Made by a program: the position numbers and the translations under genes. Shown here one piece after another: positions 1 through 9,456 of a stretch of DNA of 14,562 nucleotides (its first letter is position 1; the number at the start of each line of letters is the position of its first letter). Origin of the DNA: an uncultured Mailhella sp. (GTDB taxonomy: Bacteria > Desulfobacterota > Desulfovibrionia > Desulfovibrionales > Desulfovibrionaceae); assembly GCA_944324625.1 (NCBI GenBank), contig CALUWZ010000029.1, positions 1-14,562 of the forward strand, read 5' to 3'. Below the pieces are notes generated by a model, which saw only the letters and a program-made list of their open reading frames with translations, made no database searches and was not told where the DNA came from.

Positions 1-1198
1 AGTATTCCAAAGTCTTGGCTATGAGCCGTTCTTCATTTTTCAGTAAATTAAATACGTCTTCCTCATTGCCCGAATTAATATCAATCTCCGCCGCTGATTT
101 GGGCTGCGAACCGAAATCCGTGTAGAATTCTTCCAAACTGTCAGCAAAATACTGCTGTATGCGTTTGGATAAATCAAAAAACTCCACGCATTCGGAAAAA
201 CACAAAACAGACAGCCGTTCCATTTCATTATTGAGTTCGCGGACATTGCCCTTCCAGACATACCCCAAAAGCGCCCGTTTCACGGCATCGGAAAAACGGG
301 GCATTTCCCTGCCTGCCTGCTTGCAGAAACGATCCAAAAATTTATAGGCAAGAAGCAAAATATCTTCCCCGCGTTCGCGAAGCGGCGGAATATAAATTTC
401 CTCCACTGCCAGACGGTAATACAAATCTTCGCGGAATCTGCCTTCTTCCATGGCTTTTTCCAAATTGGCATTGGTGGCAGATATAACTTTTACGTCAACG
501 GGAATAGTCCTGCTGCTGCCTATGCGGCAAATTTCTTTTTCTTCAAGAACCCTCAGCAGCTTTGCCTGATTGGCAAGACTCATATCGCCGAGTTCGTCAA
601 GAAAAACGGTTCCGCCGTTGGCTTCTTCAAAATATCCCTTGCGCTGATTGACTCCGGTGGCTATGCCTTTTTCTATGCCGAACATTTCACTTTCAAACAG
701 CGATTCGGGAATTGCGGTACAGTTTACGGCAATAAACGGGTTTTCCCTCCTCGGAGAATGAAAATGGATAAATTTTGCAAAAAGTTCCTTGCCTGTGCCG
801 GTTTCGCCGAGCAGCATGGTATTGATGGGATTTCTGGCAATATTTTCCGCTATTTTTATGGCCTGCTGCATTTTCGGGCTTTGGCCGATAATGGAACTGC
901 CCGAAAACGTTTCCTGCATAATCCCCATTAAATGCGTATTCTTGTGCTGCAAAGCGGCTTTTGCCCGTTCCAGCTCTTCATTTTGTTTTTTGAGTTCCTC
1001 AATCAAACGCGCATTATACAAATCCCTGCCTTCCACTTTCACCAGCATAAGCCCGAAAGCCTCTGCCAAGCGGTTTAATTCAGGGGTTGCATTGCCTTCA
1101 ACCGTGTATTCAAAAAGCTTTTTGTCATCGGCGGGCTTTCCCCATGCCAAATCGTCGCAAAGCGAAATCAGAATATCCAATATCTTGTGTTCATTCAT
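1..1198 (-). CDS. Sigma-54-dependent AAA+ transcriptional activator (bacterial enhancer-binding protein), 3' end outside window
   Basis: 399 residues are visible before the window edge. After an N-terminal segment of about 95 residues with a coiled-coil-like stretch (about 62-88) and no recognisable phosphoreceiver domain comes a sigma-54 activator AAA+ domain: Walker A GETGTGKE (131-138), Walker B GGTVFLDE (195-202), the arginine-finger region RFREDLYYRL (254-263) and the sensor II motif GNVREL (317-322). The C-terminal helix-turn-helix (Fis type) is expected in the missing part. The usual GAFTGA loop that contacts sigma-54 reads GIATGV (178-183). The gene starts 7 bases after the sctU stop, so it looks like the last gene of the leftward operon. 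ATG 1198 is chosen as the first start after sctU; its ribosome site is weak. A family member of this kind beside T3SS genes (compare HrpR/HrpS) is likely the system's regulator; that role is inferred. Confidence 0.9.
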   Translation of the reverse strand, partial: MNEHKILDILISLCDDLAWGKPADDKKLFEYTVEGNATPELNRLAEAFGLMLVKVEGRDLYNARLIEELKKQNEELERAKAALQHKNTHLMGIMQETFSGSSIIGQSPKMQQAIKIAENIARNPINTMLLGETGTGKELFAKFIHFHSPRRENPFIAVNCTAIPESLFESEMFGIEKGIATGVNQRKGYFEEANGGTVFLDELGDMSLANQAKLLRVLEEKEICRIGSSRTIPVDVKVISATNANLEKAMEEGRFREDLYYRLAVEEIYIPPLRERGEDILLLAYKFLDRFCKQAGREMPRFSDAVKRALLGYVWKGNVRELNNEMERLSVLCFSECVEFFDLSKRIQQYFADSLEEFYTDFGSQPKSAAEIDINSGNEEDVFNLLKNEERLIAKTLEY

Positions 1199-1205
1199 AA
1201 TCAGC

Positions 1206-2246
1206 TCATTTATTTTCTAAAGATTGAACCCATTTTAAAACTTCAGCCACCGGCTTTATCAAGTCGGCAGGAATATAGGCATTTTCCGTTCCCTCGGCAT
1301 AAAGACTGCGCGCAAGGGGCACATTGCGCATAATGGGTATGCCCTCTTCTTCCGCAACCTTTATCATGCGCTGGGCCAATAATCCTTCGCCTTTTGCCAA
1401 AATAACGGGAAGCGGCGTTTTATCCTTTTCATAATCCAAAGCAACCGCATAATGGGTCGGGTTGGTGACAAGCACCTTTGCCCTGCGTACGTTTCCCATG
1501 GAATTTTGTGCAATAAGTTCCTGATGCAGCTGCTTGCGTTTTCCTTTAATATGCGGATCGCCTTCCATTTCCTTGTATTCCCGTTTTACTTCGTCTTTGC
1601 TCATCATGTGCTGTTTGCTGTACTGCCATTTCTGAAACATGTAATCAAGAGCCGCAATCACGCAGAATGCACTGCTTGCATAAATAAGCAGGCCTTTCAC
1701 AGCATCGGCAATAATAGTCCACAAACTGTGAATGGTACCGGTCTGGATTTTAAAAAATACCGTGACATATTCAGACAAAACTGCATATACGGCATAACTT
1801 ATCACCCCGACTTTTATCATGTTTTTTAAAAATTCAACGGCATTTTTAACGGAAAAGACTTTTTTGAACCACTTGCTCGGATTTAAATTCTCCAGTTTAG
1901 GCATGGCCGCCTTCATGCTGAACATAAAGCCTACCTGCGCAAGATTGCCGATGAGAGCCATTCCCATAACCAAAAAAACAATGGGAAAAACAACCCAAAT
2001 AAACGCATCTCCTGCTACGGCAGCAATTCTTCCCGCAGCCTGCATGAACGGCATGTGAAAACTTTCAAACGTCACATAAAACATGTACATCATGATTTCA
2101 TAAATATTCTCACCCATGGCCACAAGATATGCCACAAGCGCCATGACGGTAAGCGCCGTGGAAATTTCCTGACTCTTGCAGACATCGCCCTTTTCTCTTG
2201 CCTCGCGAAGCCGCTTGGGCGTAGGCTGTTCGGTTTTATCGCTCAA
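1206..2246 (-). CDS. sctU: SctU (YscU/SpaS/FlhB family), T3SS export switch protein
   Basis: 346 residues, the usual length for the family. The start MSDKTEQPTPKRLREAREKG is the classical FlhB/YscU N-terminus. Four hydrophobic segments (about 29-47, 80-108, 145-165, 177-205) are followed by a charged linker and the cytoplasmic domain. The autocleavage motif NPTH is intact at 262-265, within VLVTNPTHYAVAL. In this family cleavage between N and P remodels the cytoplasmic domain and lets the system change from early to later substrates. The ATG overlaps the sctT stop by 4 bases, so translation is probably coupled. Nothing is broken. The neighbours S, T and V support the injectisome rather than the flagellar assignment. 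Confidence 0.96.
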   Translation of the reverse strand: MSDKTEQPTPKRLREAREKGDVCKSQEISTALTVMALVAYLVAMGENIYEIMMYMFYVTFESFHMPFMQAAGRIAAVAGDAFIWVVFPIVFLVMGMALIGNLAQVGFMFSMKAAMPKLENLNPSKWFKKVFSVKNAVEFLKNMIKVGVISYAVYAVLSEYVTVFFKIQTGTIHSLWTIIADAVKGLLIYASSAFCVIAALDYMFQKWQYSKQHMMSKDEVKREYKEMEGDPHIKGKRKQLHQELIAQNSMGNVRRAKVLVTNPTHYAVALDYEKDKTPLPVILAKGEGLLAQRMIKVAEEEGIPIMRNVPLARSLYAEGTENAYIPADLIKPVAEVLKWVQSLENK

Positions 2247-3055
2247 AATACGCCTCCGAGTTGATTCTGCAGGGAAGAAAACGCCTGCAAAAGCAAAGGC
2301 ATGAAACTTGTTACAAGAAGCCCAAAATAAAAAATAAGCAAAAACGAAGCAATGCCGCTTTTAATGGGCATGGCAAGAATATACACGTTCAACTGCGAGG
2401 CAAATCTGTTGATAAGCCCCAAGGATACGTCAGTCAAAAGGCAGGCAACAACAATAGGCCCGGAAAAAAGCAGCATAAGTTCCATAAGATAGCCCACCTG
2501 CGAAGCAAAAAGCACGGCAAGGTCAGGACGGACAAAAGTTTCTGCGGGCAAAAGCTCGCCCACCGGATAAAGCACATAACTTGCGTACAAAAACTGCAGA
2601 AAAACCAAAAACGCCCCGCCGGCAAAGAAAATATACACAATAGCCTGAAAAAAGAACGAACCGAGCGGAGAAGTCTGCTCTCCGGACAGGGGATCGGCTC
2701 CCATGGCCTGTGTCAGGCCCCTTTGGTTATCGATAAAAAAGCCGGCGGACTGAATGGCCCAAAACATAATGCCCACCAAAAGCCCTATGCACAGACCGAT
2801 AATGCATTCCTTAAGCAGAAGGGCAAGAATCTGCGCATACATTAAAAAACCGCTGCCTGAAATATGCACCTGCTCCATGACAAGCGGATGCAATACCATG
2901 TACAGGGAAAAAGCCACGGCAAACTTTATGGAACCAACCAAAATCTGCGAACCCATAAACGGCAGGATTATCATAACCATTAAAATCCTCGGCATGCCGA
3001 CGGTAATGGCCATAATATGATCAATAAGCTGCAAACTTTCAATGAGTTCCTGCAC
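2243..3055 (-). CDS. sctT: SctT (YscT/SpaR/FliR family), inner-membrane export gate component
   Basis: 270 residues of strongly hydrophobic protein with about six membrane-embedded segments, the normal length for SctT. The stretch NQRGLTQAMGADPLSGEQTS (113-132) contains the family's typical NxRG and DPLSGEQTSPLG pattern, well conserved in SpaR and YscT proteins. In known systems SctT, together with SctR and SctS, forms the helical export gate through which unfolded substrates enter the membrane channel. It lies 9 bases after sctS and overlaps sctU by 4 bases. The S-T-U order is the standard one for T3SS operons; the usual upstream partner sctR is missing here. Confidence 0.95.
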   Translation of the reverse strand: MQELIESLQLIDHIMAITVGMPRILMVMIILPFMGSQILVGSIKFAVAFSLYMVLHPLVMEQVHISGSGFLMYAQILALLLKECIIGLCIGLLVGIMFWAIQSAGFFIDNQRGLTQAMGADPLSGEQTSPLGSFFFQAIVYIFFAGGAFLVFLQFLYASYVLYPVGELLPAETFVRPDLAVLFASQVGYLMELMLLFSGPIVVACLLTDVSLGLINRFASQLNVYILAMPIKSGIASFLLIFYFGLLVTSFMPLLLQAFSSLQNQLGGVF

Positions 3056-3064
3056 GGTTTGCCT

Positions 3065-3319
3065 CTACAACAAATAAAAACGGGTAAAAATATCCTGCGA
3101 AAACTGCAGTATCTGACCGCTGAGCCAGCCGCCCATTAAAAACAGCGTTACAATAACGGCTATGAGCTTGACACCGAACGTGAGTGTCTGTTCCTGCAGC
3201 TGAGTAATGGCCTGAATGAGACTGAGCACTATGCCCACCAAGGACGCCACCACGATAGGCGGCAAAGAGAGCATAAGCACAAGATACAAAGCCTGAGCGG
3301 CGGCATTCATAACATCCAT
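3065..3319 (-). CDS. sctS: SctS (YscS/SpaQ/FliQ family), small export gate subunit
   Basis: 84 residues with two hydrophobic hairpin helices (about 10-37 and 47-68) separated by the conserved polar turn ITQLQEQTLTFGVK, a FliQ/YscS hallmark (usual length 84-90). Four copies of this subunit wrap the SctR/SctT core in known systems. An AGGA ribosome site sits 7 bases before the ATG. It is followed by sctT after a 9-base gap. The 55 bases between it and the end of the sctV reading frame show no recognisable terminator, so continued transcription from sctV is likely. Confidence 0.95.
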   Translation of the reverse strand: MDVMNAAAQALYLVLMLSLPPIVVASLVGIVLSLIQAITQLQEQTLTFGVKLIAVIVTLFLMGGWLSGQILQFSQDIFTRFYLL

Positions 3320-3374: not shown

Positions 3375-4127
3375 TTAAAAACGGATTCTTTCAATGGGCT
3401 GAACTGAAATTTCAGGCGTTATTTCCTGATAAGCCACAACAGGAAGTTCATAAAATTCCCCTTCGATAAGACGGCGCACATAACGGCGTATATCCATGGA
3501 GGCAAGCAGAACCGGTTTCTGCTTGCTTGTTTTTACTTTTGCAAAAACAATACGCAAAGCCTGCAAAATCCGTTTTGAATTTTCAGGGTCAAGAGCCAAA
3601 AATGCTCCTGCGGAAGTTTGGCGGATGGCTTTGCGCACAATTTCTTCCACCTGAGGGTCAAGCAAAATGGCAGGCAGCATATTATGGCCTTTTGAATACA
3701 TATAGCTGATTTGGCGTTTCAGGCCGCCGCGCACGTATTCCGTAAGCATAACCGTATCTTTTTCCTTGGGAGCCCATTCAATCAGAGTTTCCAGTATGGT
3801 GCGAAGGTCGCGGATGGAAACCTGTTCCTGCACAAGACGCTGAAAAATTTCCGCAATGCGCTGAACAGGCAGAAGGCGGGTTGTCTCGCGCACAAGGTCA
3901 GGACTTCTTTCTTCCATTCTGTCAAGCAGATATTTTGTTTCCTGCATGCCGAGAAAGGTTGAAGCATGACGGGCCAAAATAAGAGACAAATGATAAGCCA
4001 GAATCTGAGCGGGAGGCATGCAGGAAATGCCTGCACGCTCCAAAGACTGCTGATAGTTTTTGGAAACCCATATTGACTCTATGTTGGGCAGAAACGGCTC
4101 GCCGATTGCATAATCAATGCCGAGCAT
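3375..4127 (-). CDS. sctV: SctV C-terminal fragment: most of the cytoplasmic ring domain
   Basis: 250 residues counted from the first ATG (4127) after the third in-frame stop. It contains the well-conserved SctV cytoplasmic sequence: FLGMQETKYLLDRMEERSPD, ILETLIEWAPKEKDTVMLTE and RKAIRQTSAGAFLALDP, closely matching the YscV and chlamydial CdsV style. This part normally forms the nonameric ring that binds chaperones, gatekeeper and SctX/SctY. There is no convincing ribosome site before ATG 4127, so independent translation is poorly supported. It is in the same frame as the N-terminal fragment. If the stops are errors, this is simply the second part of one 698-residue protein. Confidence 0.8.
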   Translation of the reverse strand: MLGIDYAIGEPFLPNIESIWVSKNYQQSLERAGISCMPPAQILAYHLSLILARHASTFLGMQETKYLLDRMEERSPDLVRETTRLLPVQRIAEIFQRLVQEQVSIRDLRTILETLIEWAPKEKDTVMLTEYVRGGLKRQISYMYSKGHNMLPAILLDPQVEEIVRKAIRQTSAGAFLALDPENSKRILQALRIVFAKVKTSKQKPVLLASMDIRRYVRRLIEGEFYELPVVAYQEITPEISVQPIERIRF

Positions 4128-4136
4128 TATCAGGTT

Positions 4137-4181
4137 CTAGCGAGTGACGCGGACCTGAATTGTATCCTATTCAAGCATTCA
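4137..4181 (-). other. Cluster of three in-frame stop codons inside sctV
   Basis: Read on the minus strand from 4181: TGA, ATG CTT GAA, TAG, nine sense codons, TAG. No other in-frame stop interrupts the remaining part of the sctV frame. TGA (sctT, sctU, sctY, sctE) and TAG (the LcrH-like gene at 9944-9946) serve as normal terminators elsewhere in the window, so the genetic code is not globally changed. The first stop sits where SctV homologues usually have glycine (NEVPxxxG), which fits GGA to TGA. Confidence 0.9.
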
Positions 4182-5471
4182 TCGGGACATGGGAACTTCG
4201 TTCAGGTTCAGAATATCGGAAACGCCGGCAAGTCCCTGATTGGGGCGAATGTGAATGCCGGGAAACGGCACGCCCAAATCAAAATACAAAGCCTGACGCA
4301 AAGAAATCAGTTCGTCATTCAGGCTTTCATAATCGAGTTCCTGACCGAATTCAGGAGAAATATCCAAAATAATCGGAACGGTAGGCGCAAAATTATCTCC
4401 TTGGTCAGAACTTTTGGCTTTCTTCTTCGGCTTGGAGGCTGAAGGAGTAAGGGTTTTGGAAAGTTCTTCCTGAACGTCAGGCTGCTTGGGCGCACTGCGA
4501 AGACGCTTGAGCACATAGCCGAACCCTGCCACCAAAGCCGCAAGGGTCATAAGCTGAGGCTTCGGAAAACCGGGAATGAGGGAAAAAAGAAAAATCAATC
4601 CGCCTGCCATTAAAATAGCTTTGGGCTGAGCAAAAAACTGCTCGCCCACCTGCGTTCCGATATTGTCTTCACTGTCGCCGCTTCTTGTTATCAGAATACC
4701 TGCCGAAATAGATACCAAAAGAGACGGTATCTGGGAAACAAGACCGTCGCCGATAGTCAGAATGCCGTATGTCTGCAGGGCTTCGCTGCCTGTCATGCCG
4801 TGCTGGGTGATACCGATAACAGACCCGCCCACAATATTTACCACGGCAATAATCATGCCTGCGATACTGTCGCCTTTAACAAACTTCATGGCACCGTCCA
4901 TGGCACCGTACATTTGGCTTTCCAGAGAAACACGCTCGCGCCTTCTTTGTGCCTCTTCCATATCGATAACGCCGGCACGCATGTCAGCGTCAATGGACAT
5001 TTGCTTGCCCGGCATGGCGTCAAGGGTAAATCTGGCGCCGACTTCCGCCACACGTTCCGCACCTTTGGCAATAACCAAAAACTGCACGATAGTCAGAATC
5101 AGGAAAACAACGGCGCCGACGACAAAATTGCCGCCAAGGGCAAATTCGCCGAACGTAAAAATAATTTCCCCCGCATCGGCCTGCAGGAGAATAAGGCGCG
5201 TAGTGGTAATGTTAAGACCCACGCGAAACAGCGTGGTAAAAAGCAGCATGGTTGGAAAAACAGAAAAATCAAGCGCAGTTTTCACATACATGCTCATCAT
5301 GAGCATGAGAAAAGAAAGCACCATGTTTATGCCGATCAGCGTATCCACCACCGGCGTAGGCAGAGGAATAATCATAAGCGCAATGACAACAACGAGCAGA
5401 AACACCATATTGATGTCATTGTGTTTGGCTATGAGAGAAACGGCTTTAACGGATTTATTGAAAAAACTCAT
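4179..5471 (-). CDS. sctV: SctV N-terminal fragment: membrane domain plus start of cytoplasmic domain
   Basis: 430 residues from ATG 5471 to the TGA at 4179. About eight hydrophobic segments occupy residues 20-320. The FHIPEP-family core is clear: FRVGLNITTTRLIL (82-95), AKGAERVAEVGARFTLDAMP (135-154) and the cytoplasmic loop GKQMSIDADMRAG that follows. A lysine-rich linker (about 325-358) leads into the cytoplasmic domain, which runs to NEVPMSR and then stops. ATG 5471 is preferred over the upstream in-frame TTG 5477 because a GGGA ribosome site lies 7 bases before the ATG but almost touches the TTG. It begins 2 bases after the sctY stop. On its own it lacks most of the ring-forming domain and would not be expected to be fully functional. 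Confidence 0.85.
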   Translation of the reverse strand: MSFFNKSVKAVSLIAKHNDINMVFLLVVVIALMIIPLPTPVVDTLIGINMVLSFLMLMMSMYVKTALDFSVFPTMLLFTTLFRVGLNITTTRLILLQADAGEIIFTFGEFALGGNFVVGAVVFLILTIVQFLVIAKGAERVAEVGARFTLDAMPGKQMSIDADMRAGVIDMEEAQRRRERVSLESQMYGAMDGAMKFVKGDSIAGMIIAVVNIVGGSVIGITQHGMTGSEALQTYGILTIGDGLVSQIPSLLVSISAGILITRSGDSEDNIGTQVGEQFFAQPKAILMAGGLIFLFSLIPGFPKPQLMTLAALVAGFGYVLKRLRSAPKQPDVQEELSKTLTPSASKPKKKAKSSDQGDNFAPTVPIILDISPEFGQELDYESLNDELISLRQALYFDLGVPFPGIHIRPNQGLAGVSDILNLNEVPMSR

Positions 5472-5473
5472 GC

Positions 5474-5815
5474 TCAATTCCCTTTCAGCAGCAAATACTT
5501 GTCAAGCGTATCCTTTGCCTCGTCCCTGCGGCCTTCAAGGTACAAAGCCTGTGCTTTAAGCAGATAATAACAGGCCTGCCTGCCCACAAAAACGGAACCG
5601 TCAAAAAGATTCTGCAGATATTCCAAAGCCTGCGCTCCGTTTTTCTGCATAATCGCAAGGGACGCCGTCAGGGCAAAAATACTTTTGTCATAGGGATTGT
5701 TTTCCGTCATGACAAGCAGGGATTTCAAAATCTTTTCGGCTTTTTCGTATAAACCCATGCGGTAATACAAATATCCCAGAATATGCAGAGATTTCTGTTC
5801 GTCGATGTTGAGCAT
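5474..5815 (-). CDS. sctY: SctY (YscY-like), TPR-like chaperone of SctX
   Basis: 113 residues of helical, TPR-like sequence, with repeats around LHILGYLYYRMGLYEKAEKI (10-29) and YYLLKAQALYLEGRRDEAKD (82-101). YscY is 114 residues, has this fold and is encoded directly before lcrD/yscV, after yscX, as here. In Yersinia the YscX-YscY complex binds the cytoplasmic domain of YscV and is needed for export of early substrates. The ATG is next to the sctX stop (no gap) with a GGGGGA ribosome site reaching into the sctX end. The call rests on length, TPR character and gene order more than on sequence identity, because SctY proteins diverge strongly. A YscG-type TPR chaperone is the main alternative. 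Confidence 0.75.
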   Translation of the reverse strand: MLNIDEQKSLHILGYLYYRMGLYEKAEKILKSLLVMTENNPYDKSIFALTASLAIMQKNGAQALEYLQNLFDGSVFVGRQACYYLLKAQALYLEGRRDEAKDTLDKYLLLKGN

Positions 5816-6175
5816 TTATCCCCCGATCATAAGCCCGCAGTATGCCTGCAGGAGCGTTTTGTTTTCCTGCAGGGGAATCAGTTCTTCCTGAACAGTCTGC
5901 CGAACAAGGCTGTCCGTGCTTTCCTGCATTTTTCCTATGCATTGGTCAAGTGTCTGCGAAAAAACGGCAGGACGCAGAAGCTGCCCGTCCCCTGTGCTCG
6001 GCGAAAGGCTTTCTTCAATGATTTGTGCATAATTTTTGGGAGCATACAAATCTTCCAGCCCGGCTTCATACAAAACGGAAGCGGCAAGATTTTCGGCTTT
6101 GGGAAGAGCACTGCTGCCGTTGTATTCCAAAATATTCTGTATGCCCAAAGAAGAATCAAGCAAATTTATTTTCAT
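5816..6175 (-). CDS. sctX: SctX (YscX-like), early secreted T3SS component
   Basis: 119 residues, soluble, no signal peptide, mostly helical in its second half (about 75-115), compared with 122 residues for YscX. It lies between a SycN-like chaperone gene and sctY, exactly as yscX does in Yersinia. YscX is itself exported, is held by its chaperone YscY and docks on the YscV ring. A GGGGGA ribosome site lies 5 bases before ATG 6175. I recognise no strict residue motif, so the identification comes from synteny, size and partner genes. The SctX/SctY pair is known mainly from the Ysc family and Chlamydiae, which helps place this system. Confidence 0.7.
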   Translation of the reverse strand: MKINLLDSSLGIQNILEYNGSSALPKAENLAASVLYEAGLEDLYAPKNYAQIIEESLSPSTGDGQLLRPAVFSQTLDQCIGKMQESTDSLVRQTVQEELIPLQENKTLLQAYCGLMIGG

Positions 6176-8310: not shown

Positions 8311-8348
8311 CGGCATAAGCAATTTTGTTATAAAACAAAATAATGCCG
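8311..8348 (+). promoter_or_regulatory. Two-part stem-loop between the small gene and the first sctA
   Basis: An inner 20-base palindrome (ATTTTGTT 8322-8329, loop ATAA, AACAAAAT 8334-8341) is embedded in outer arms CGGCAT (8311-8316) and ATGCCG (8343-8348). It ends 33 bases before ATG 8382, in the only sizeable gap (117 bases) of the translocon part. There is no T-run after it, so an mRNA processing or stability element or an operator is more likely than a terminator. Confidence 0.4.
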
Positions 8349-8381
8349 CAAATCAAAACCATTAACAACGTGAGGTTAAAT

Positions 8382-8897
8382 ATGTCTACAGGTCCTGTTT
8401 CAAATACAAGTTCCACCAGTGCCATTATGGGCAGCATTGATCTTGGTCCCAGCAACAGCATTCAGTTTATGTTTGCAAAACTCCAGCTTGCCCAAGCACA
8501 AATCTGCAAAGACCAAGCCAAAGAATACATCGATAAAGTCACCCAAACCCAAGAAGAACAAAAAAAATGCGCCGACATGATTGCCAAAGCACGCGATCTT
8601 CAGCAGCAGGCAAAAAACGACGATACAACAATCGAAATGCCCCAAGACATGAAAGAATTTTTTGAAGAAAACGGACTCAAATGGGACACAAAAGGCGGCG
8701 ATGATCTTCACAATGAAGACGAATGGGAATACAACATCAAATCCCTGACCAACTACCAAGACACCTTGGGCACAACCACCCAAACCGACATGGTTTATCT
8801 GCAGGACTTTATGAGCCAATACAACGGCTTCCTGCAAGGAGCAAACTCCGCCATCAGTGAATCCAACGACACTCTGACAACAATTCTGAGAGGATAA
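8382..8897 (+). CDS. sctA: SctA-like filament/tip protein, first copy (EspA/SseB family)
   Basis: 171 residues. The long helical N-terminal part (about 22-76) holds NSIQFMFAKLQLAQAQICKD, similar in character to the EspA helix around its MFAYMYQAQ segment. A polar central part contains MPQDMKEFFEENGLKW (86-101, compare EspA LPDEVISYIND), and a C-terminal helix ends TLTTILRG. EspA and SseB polymerise through such terminal coiled coils into a sheath between needle and translocon. ATG 8382 is preferred over 8343 because GAGG lies 6 bases before it and the second copy starts at the equivalent MTGPVSN. It is followed after 1 base by a close paralogue. The EspA/SseB assignment is by pattern and gene order, since this family is poorly conserved. 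Confidence 0.72.
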   Translation: MSTGPVSNTSSTSAIMGSIDLGPSNSIQFMFAKLQLAQAQICKDQAKEYIDKVTQTQEEQKKCADMIAKARDLQQQAKNDDTTIEMPQDMKEFFEENGLKWDTKGGDDLHNEDEWEYNIKSLTNYQDTLGTTTQTDMVYLQDFMSQYNGFLQGANSAISESNDTLTTILRG

Positions 8898-9356
8898 TAT
8901 GACAGGACCGGTTTCAAACTCCAATTCTGTCGGTGCCATTATGGGCAGCATTGACCTTGGTCCCAGCAACAGCATTCAGTTTATGTTTGCAAAGCTCCAG
9001 CTTGCCCAAGCACAAATCTGCAAAGACCAAGCCCAAGAATACATCGATAAAGTCACCAACACCCAAGAAGAACAAAAAAAATGCGCCGATATGATAGCCT
9101 TAGCGCGTGAAATGCAGAACAAAGGCGAAGCAGGAGACGGTGTCGGAGAAAAAAGCATTTCAGGAACAACCGTTACAGGCGAAGACTGCGCTGCCATGCC
9201 CAAGGAACTTGTCGAGTTTATGGATAAAAACAATCTGCTCTACACAAACAAAGACGGTGACTATATCCTTGGCAAGGACGAGTGGGAACAGTGCATAAAA
9301 TCCCTGACCAACTACCAAGACACCTTGGGCACAACCACCCAAACCGACATGGTTTA
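8421..9356 (+). repeat. Direct tandem duplication: two homologous blocks shared by the sctA copies
   Basis: Block A is 8421-8585 against 8935-9099 (165 bases each, only scattered differences). Block B is 8739-8797 against 9298-9356 (59 bases, identical). The intervening sequences (8586-8738 and 9100-9297) do not align well. The pattern shows a recent duplication or continuing gene conversion of the ends with a diverged centre. Confidence 0.85.
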
Positions 9357-9456
9357 CCTGCAGGATTTTATGAGCCAGTACAACGGCTTCCTGCAAGGGG
9401 CAAACAGCGCCGTCAAAGAATCCAACCAGACCCTTACCACTATTTTGCGAGGCTAA
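8899..9456 (+). CDS. sctA: SctA-like filament/tip protein, second copy (EspA/SseB family)
   Basis: 185 residues, a tandem paralogue of the preceding gene. The first 68 residues and the last 53 are nearly the same as in copy 1, with 39 consecutive identical residues from IKSLTNYQ to LQGANSA (133-171). The centre (about 69-131) is different and 14 residues longer, with a Gly/Ser/Thr-rich insert (GEAGDGVGEKSISGTTVTGE) and an extra cysteine (97). As in copy 1, a motif like EspA LPDEVISYIND is kept (MPKELVEFMDKNN, 100-112). The start lies 1 base after the previous stop, with AGAGGA 4 bases upstream. Both may be exported subunits of one filament, or one may be the tip; the sequence does not decide. 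Confidence 0.72.
   Translation: MTGPVSNSNSVGAIMGSIDLGPSNSIQFMFAKLQLAQAQICKDQAQEYIDKVTNTQEEQKKCADMIALAREMQNKGEAGDGVGEKSISGTTVTGEDCAAMPKELVEFMDKNNLLYTNKDGDYILGKDEWEQCIKSLTNYQDTLGTTTQTDMVYLQDFMSQYNGFLQGANSAVKESNQTLTTILRG

What the first reader, a model, noticed from the sequence alone, without database searches (positions are those of the whole stretch)
4137..4181. Three in-frame stop codons within 15 codons split an otherwise perfect sctV
The sctV frame is continuous for 698 codons, yet carries TGA, TAG and TAG in 45 bases and none elsewhere. Neutral decay would be expected to scatter stops and frameshifts; here all are clustered, in frame, with homologous sequence between and after them. All three can be explained by one change type: G to T (GGA, GAG, GAG; the first fits the family glycine after NEVP) or C to T (CGA, CAG, CAG). 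SctV is essential for known T3SSs, and all neighbours are intact. Explanations to separate are a real local mutation burst or silencing of the system, a consensus or assembly error, local recoding, or a working two-piece SctV.
Basis: seen in the sequence. Interest (0 to 1): 0.85.

Follow-up and report, generated by a model that had tools for sequence, protein, structure and literature searches.

The report
Likely sequence error in secretion-gate gene
The gene for the export gate of a bacterial type III secretion machine carries three stop codons in one short stretch of this draft genome; a public copy that is identical for 250 residues right after that stretch lacks two of them, so those two are likely a local sequencing or assembly error rather than new biology.

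Summary
The three stops are there: minus strand TGA 4181-4179, TAG 4169-4167, TAG 4139-4137, in a sctV frame of 698 codons open elsewhere. But the gene is not "otherwise perfect". In codons 433-450, eight letters (three stops, five sense) occur in 0 of 119 relatives, against 4 of 680 in the rest of the frame. A protein from another assembly, P0121, equals the window at 250 of 250 residues after the stops, yet has other, sense residues at seven codons of the stretch, both TAGs included. The smallest set of base differences is eight, all transversions. Recoding is unlikely: TAG and TGA end genes here, and 226 of 236 aligned orthologues have no internal stop. So the two TAGs and five neighbouring changes are most likely a local sequence error of this contig. 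The first stop is open: P0121 begins exactly at the next codon, with the same rare methionine, so TGA may be a real lesion, or that contig may end there. A two-chain SctV restarted at TGA-ATG is possible but poorly supported: no ribosome-binding site, a cut inside a folded subdomain, no split at this place in 119 relatives.

The parts
4182..5471 (-). sctV piece 1: membrane domain, linker and first part of the cytosolic domain (430 codons from ATG 5471)
   Evidence: (TIGR01399 positions 2-410); listed in the protein database as P0001, the window's own protein
4179..4181 (-). Stop 1, TGA, codon 433
   Evidence: 0 of 119 relatives has a stop here; the same-species protein P0121 starts at the next codon, so this stop may be shared
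4176..4178 (-). ATG, codon 434, directly after stop 1; methionine here in 0 of 119 relatives but also the first residue of P0121
   Evidence: no ribosome-binding site upstream
4128..4169 (-). Stretch of codons 437-450 in which seven codons differ from the same-species copy P0121; likely erroneous sequence
   Evidence: 7 of 17 codons 434-450 differ, 0 of 250 after them; 8 minimal changes, 8 transversions
4167..4169 (-). Stop 2, TAG, codon 437 (sense in P0121)
4137..4139 (-). Stop 3, TAG, codon 447 (sense in P0121)
3375..4127 (-). sctV piece 2: rest of the cytosolic domain (250 codons from ATG 4127, and the natural stop)
   Evidence: (TIGR01399 positions 442-677); 250 of 250 residues identical to P0121
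5477..6175 (-). Two small genes directly upstream: a TPR protein in the YscY position (5477-5815) and a YscX family protein (5819-6175)
   Evidence: PF09474 67.6 bits; TPR_19 30.4 bits; the YscY label is by position only
1206..3319 (-). sctU, sctT, sctS directly downstream, without internal stops
   Evidence: over the curated cut-offs of TIGR01404, TIGR01401, TIGR01403

Best explanation
Two of the three stops (TAG 4169-4167 and TAG 4139-4137), with five odd sense codons among them, are likely a local sequence or assembly error of this draft contig, because a protein from another assembly that equals the window at all 250 residues after the stops has other, sense residues at all seven places. 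The error would lie in about 42 bases (4128-4169). How it arose is inferred: for example a thinly covered join bridged by poor read ends in a 237-contig draft. The first stop (TGA 4181-4179) is a separate matter: it may be a real lesion of this species, since the other assembly's protein begins at the very next codon with the same rare methionine. If it is real, SctV would end after the first part of its cytosolic domain and the injectisome of the neighbouring intact genes would likely be inactive.
For: P0121 (one ENA contig of 18,250 bases): 0 of 250 differences to piece 2 but 7 of 17 in codons 434-450 (Fisher p 1.1e-9, boundary set at the start of piece 2). In those 17 codons P0121 differs from the next species' copy P0002 at 1, the window at 8. 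Eight letters with 0 of 119 support lie in 18 codons, against 4 in the other 680; six intact relatives picked from the 119 and scored the same way reach at most 4 in 18. All 8 minimal base differences are transversions. The genome is a draft of 237 contigs, 88.67% complete. No template for the stretch elsewhere in the genome and no repeat pair over it.
Against: The draft is not generally poor: of 236 orthologues aligned between 40 of its 237 contigs and a same-genus genome, 226 have no internal stop and the other ten look like overlong starts or wrong-frame alignments; an error here would be isolated. A real burst in this one strain would look the same. P0121 does not clear the first stop. The transversion count rests on P0121's residues, not its bases.
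Confidence: 0.7

Rival explanations
1. The whole stretch is real: a burst of substitutions in this strain has broken sctV, with the TGA first (shared with the sister strain) and the rest later, so the secretion system is being lost.
For: The window and P0121 share the methionine at codon 434 and perhaps the TGA; no full-length copy above 94% identity to piece 1 is among the 120 listed of 5237 hits.
Against: Seven changed codons in 14, none in the next 250, all minimal changes transversions; the other T3SS genes examined (sctU, T, S, W, C in the window; sctR, sctJ and a cut sctN-like frame elsewhere) show no stop.
Confidence: 0.17
2. A sub-case of the best explanation: stop 1 is error or a contig-end effect as well, the contig of P0121 simply ends at the same hard-to-assemble place, and sctV is intact in the organism.
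For: Short proteins from the ENA and Logan sources begin with methionine in 40 of 40 and 11 of 11 rows checked (65 of 120 rows were checked; NCBI rows 0 of 6, JGI rows 4 of 8), so a gene truncated at a contig end would also be shown with a methionine start; a 99% identical copy of the neighbouring upstream gene is listed on another contig, of 13,093 bases.
Against: An earlier in-frame ATG lies only four codons upstream (codon 430), so a contig end would have to fall very near; the window and P0121 agree on a methionine seen in 0 of 119 relatives.
Confidence: 0.3
3. A working two-piece SctV: translation stops at TGA and restarts at the ATG directly after it, giving two chains that assemble in the ring.
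For: TGA and ATG are adjacent and P0121 starts there; both pieces stay well conserved, 95% and 96% identical to P0002. Two of 16 gene starts in the window as I placed them (sctW and the gene at 8343) also lack an anti-SD pairing, so a missing site is no proof.
Against: Predicted pairing with the anti-SD tail is -0.5 kcal/mol; 83% of the 65 in-frame start codons inside sctV pair as well or better; the cut falls near the end of the first part of subdomain SD1, whose second part would sit on the other chain; 119 of 119 best relatives of piece 1 run through this place unsplit; in the window two more stops follow.
Confidence: 0.05
4. Local recoding: the stops are read as amino acids.
For: The frame goes on without a shift.
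Against: TAG ends 36 and TGA 20 of 191 orthologues at the relative's end; 226 of 236 have no internal stop; P0121 has sense codons at two of the positions.
Confidence: 0.01

Closest known systems
SctV (YscV/InvA/SsaV/MxiA, TIGR01399), export gate of injectisome type III secretion systems
   Same: Both pieces fit successive parts of the model and solved SctV chains such as 7alw and 7qij; operon neighbours are sctS, sctT, sctU and YscX/YscY-like genes.
   Different: The frame is cut by three stops as written; neither piece alone reaches the model's cut-off (557.1 and 305.3 against 692.25 bits).
Intact sctV of gut Desulfovibrionaceae (Mailhella and kin; P0002-P0120)
   Same: 94% to 74% identity over piece 1; 116 of 119 are 680 residues or longer, the rest 476, 514 and 643.
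   Different: 119 of 119 have sense residues at the three stop columns.
T3SS genes with an internal translation start (SctQ/HrcQ, PMC8553256; only its search listing seen)
   Same: Would be the nearest precedent for a second start inside a T3SS gene.
   Different: There the long product is also made and the gene is not cut by stops (recalled); here no ribosome-binding site precedes the ATG.

Membership tests
SctV export gate (TIGR01399) | Collinear match to the model over its length | tested here: met
   Pieces cover positions 2-410 and 442-677 of 677
SctV export gate (TIGR01399) | One protein above the curated cut-off of 692.25 bits | tested here: not met
   557.1 and 305.3 bits for the two pieces apart; the frame was not read through
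Local sequence error | Another copy from the same species with sense codons at the places in question | tested here: met
   P0121 at codons 437 and 447 and five more; not shown for codon 433. That it is the same species is inferred from 250 of 250 identical residues
Local sequence error | Reads of the source sample disagree with the contig | not testable with these tools
   No reads held
Genuine pseudogene | Same lesion in independent assemblies of the species | tested here: inconclusive
   P0121 starts right after codon 433, but its DNA and contig end are unseen
Two-chain (split) gene with restart | Ribosome-binding site or coupling signal at the second start | tested here: inconclusive
   No SD pairing (-0.5 kcal/mol); the stop and the ATG are adjacent, which could allow a restart
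Two-chain (split) gene with restart | The split recurs in relatives | tested here: not met
   0 of 119; 7 other genomes with a sctV at 54% identity or more have one open frame of 697-713 codons; 85 alignments of P0121 over 200 residues long to 89 relatives' loci hold no stop
Recoded stop codons | Codon has lost its use as terminator, or internal stops recur | tested here: not met
   TAA 135, TAG 36, TGA 20 as terminal codons of 191; 226 of 236 orthologues without internal stop

The most novel reading that the evidence does not exclude
In this species SctV, the one-chain export gate of injectisomes, is made as two chains: a membrane chain that ends at TGA and a cytosolic chain restarted at the ATG that touches it, so that the gate ring is built from split subunits; only the two later TAGs are error.
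Probability: 0.05. Interest if true: 0.7.

Novelty: not a real feature. Interest (0 to 1): 0.18.

Why it matters
It shows how a striking cluster of stops in a draft genome can be judged without reads: a same-species copy in public data and a count of private residues separate a likely local error from biology. It also warns that the first stop alone deserves a read check, because a broken or split export gate would decide whether this bacterium's secretion system works.

Tried and rejected
Template or gene conversion: the 106 bases around the stops match nothing else in the genome beyond five weak stretches of 14-31 bases and no repeat pair overlaps the stops. A second, full-length sctV in the genome: besides the window only the flagellar FlhA on C26, cut by the contig end, was found. 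A viral-contig scan with 30 bases of piece 2 found nothing. A first comparison with the same-genus genome G001 gave 20 of 215 best hits with a stop, mostly because wrong-strand frames had been taken as genes; one search replaced it. There, of 236 hits of 70% identity or more and 100 residues or more, ten held a stop: by my reading six lie in overlong N-termini (L123, L130, L119, L110 twice, L133) and four are wrong-frame alignments, since another frame is open over the whole stretch or all but one codon of it (L138 twice, L104, L135). Some of the 226 clean hits may also be wrong-strand frames; I did not check them one by one. A mismatch count against G001 was not useful as a test: among 101 orthologues of 88% identity or more, variable stretches reach 13 mismatches in 17 codons, so private residues and the same-species copy were used instead. 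One search stopped with a script error after its main counts; the rest was redone. Papers: no held paper joins the words Mailhella and type III secretion; two searches on draft-genome errors gave two listed papers that I did not open and none; one search listed three off the point; PMC3459982, PMC4641369, PMC8213127 and PMC8223533 were seen as passages.

Full report
What is there. The window is the whole of contig C29 (14,562 bases) of a draft genome of 1,801,007 bases in 237 contigs, 88.67% complete. Named relatives of its sctV are gut Desulfovibrionaceae such as Mailhella. The contig carries an injectisome cluster: a sigma-54 type regulator, sctU, sctT, sctS, sctV, TPR (YscY position) and YscX genes, a chaperone-like gene, sctW, two similar EspA-like genes, a translocator chaperone, translocator-like genes, sctC and the likely start of sctD. 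The sctV frame on the minus strand, 5471-3375, is open over 698 codons except for TGA at 4181-4179, TAG at 4169-4167 and TAG at 4139-4137.

More than three stops. The best 119 listed relatives of piece 1, other than the window's own entry, were aligned. All 119 have a sense residue at each stop column. Five further codons in the same 18 (434, 439, 441, 444, 450) carry residues that 0 of 119 relatives have. In the other 680 codons of the frame there are only 4 such private residues. Six intact relatives, picked by me from the 119 and each scored against the other 118, have at most 4 private residues in any 18 codons. So the odd thing is a dense patch of eight private letters, three of them stops, in an otherwise ordinary gene.

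A same-species copy. The search with piece 2 admits only proteins of 137-437 residues. It returned P0121, 267 residues, from one ENA contig of 18,250 bases. Its last 250 residues equal piece 2 exactly; before them it has 17 residues that line up with codons 434-450. There the window differs at seven codons: 437, 439, 441, 444, 446, 447 and 450. Two of these are the TAG stops. The residue at 446 is not private (7 of 119 relatives have it). In these 17 codons P0121 differs from the next species' copy P0002 at one residue, the window at eight. The seven codons need at least eight base changes, and all eight are transversions, which is unusual for natural substitutions (general knowledge) and fits random base error somewhat better. 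I take the two TAGs and the five missense changes as error of this contig with a confidence of 0.7. How the error arose is inference.

The first stop. P0121 starts exactly at codon 434, the ATG that follows the TGA, and shares with the window a methionine that 0 of 119 relatives have. Either the other assembly has the TGA too, or its contig ends within a few codons upstream. Short proteins from the same sources in this database start with methionine in 40 of 40 ENA and 11 of 11 Logan rows checked (65 of 120 rows checked in all; NCBI 0 of 6, JGI 4 of 8), so a contig end cannot be ruled out. No full-length copy closer than 94% to piece 1 was listed, though a whole 698-residue protein would have been within the length limits. 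I give about even odds, somewhat in favour, that the TGA is real.

Other readings. Recoding: among orthologues that end where the relative ends, the terminal codons are TAA 135, TAG 36 and TGA 20, and 226 of 236 aligned orthologues have no internal stop. Two-chain SctV: the ATG at 434 has no ribosome-binding site (-0.5 kcal/mol), although two of 16 gene starts in the window, as I placed them, have none either. By the SsaV subdomain ranges in PMC8223533 (passages read; SD1 350-418 and 464-479, SD2 419-463) and the alignment of piece 2 to the SsaV chain 7awa (query 12 at chain 435), the patch would fall at about 406-423 by counting back without gaps, the end of the first part of SD1 and the start of SD2. 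A cut there would put the two parts of SD1 on separate chains. The ring's protomers are held by SD3-SD3 and SD3-SD1 contacts (PMC8223533). Decay of the whole system: sctU, T, S, W and C score above their model cut-offs; sctR on C58 and sctJ on C187 have no stops, and an sctN-like frame on C58 is cut by the contig end without a stop in the part seen.

Verdict. The remaining question, whether the TGA is real in this species, is an ordinary check with reads. Against this reading stands the otherwise clean draft: no convincing internal stop among 236 orthologues from 40 of its 237 contigs.

Noticed in passing
8343-8897 and 8899-9456 (+): Two adjacent genes encode near-duplicate proteins (76% identical) with long identical ends and a variable middle; the first matches EspA (PF03433, 23.0 bits) just below the cut-off of 23.4, the second matches no Pfam family. 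They may be tandem needle-extension or tip proteins.
   Followed up: partly
5477-6175 (-): A YscX family gene and a TPR gene in the YscY position lie directly upstream of sctV; a paper listed (PMC9163089, abstract start seen) reports that the export gate SctV binds complexes such as YscX:YscY, so partner genes of the gate sit next to it.
   Followed up: partly
2-1198 (-): A sigma-54 type regulator next to the cluster, as in the Desulfovibrio vulgaris T3SS that PMC4641369 puts under a sigma-54 dependent regulator (passages).
   Followed up: no
L128 (G000:C26) 13237-14655: The flagellar FlhA gene is cut by the contig end (473 codons kept, 93% identical to that of G001), so the genome has a flagellar export gate beside sctV.
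   Followed up: partly
P0122 (ENA contig of 98,128 bases): A 271-residue sctV end piece from a relative of G004 (17 of 271 differ) starts near the same place; whether it is a contig end or another broken sctV could not be seen.
   Followed up: partly
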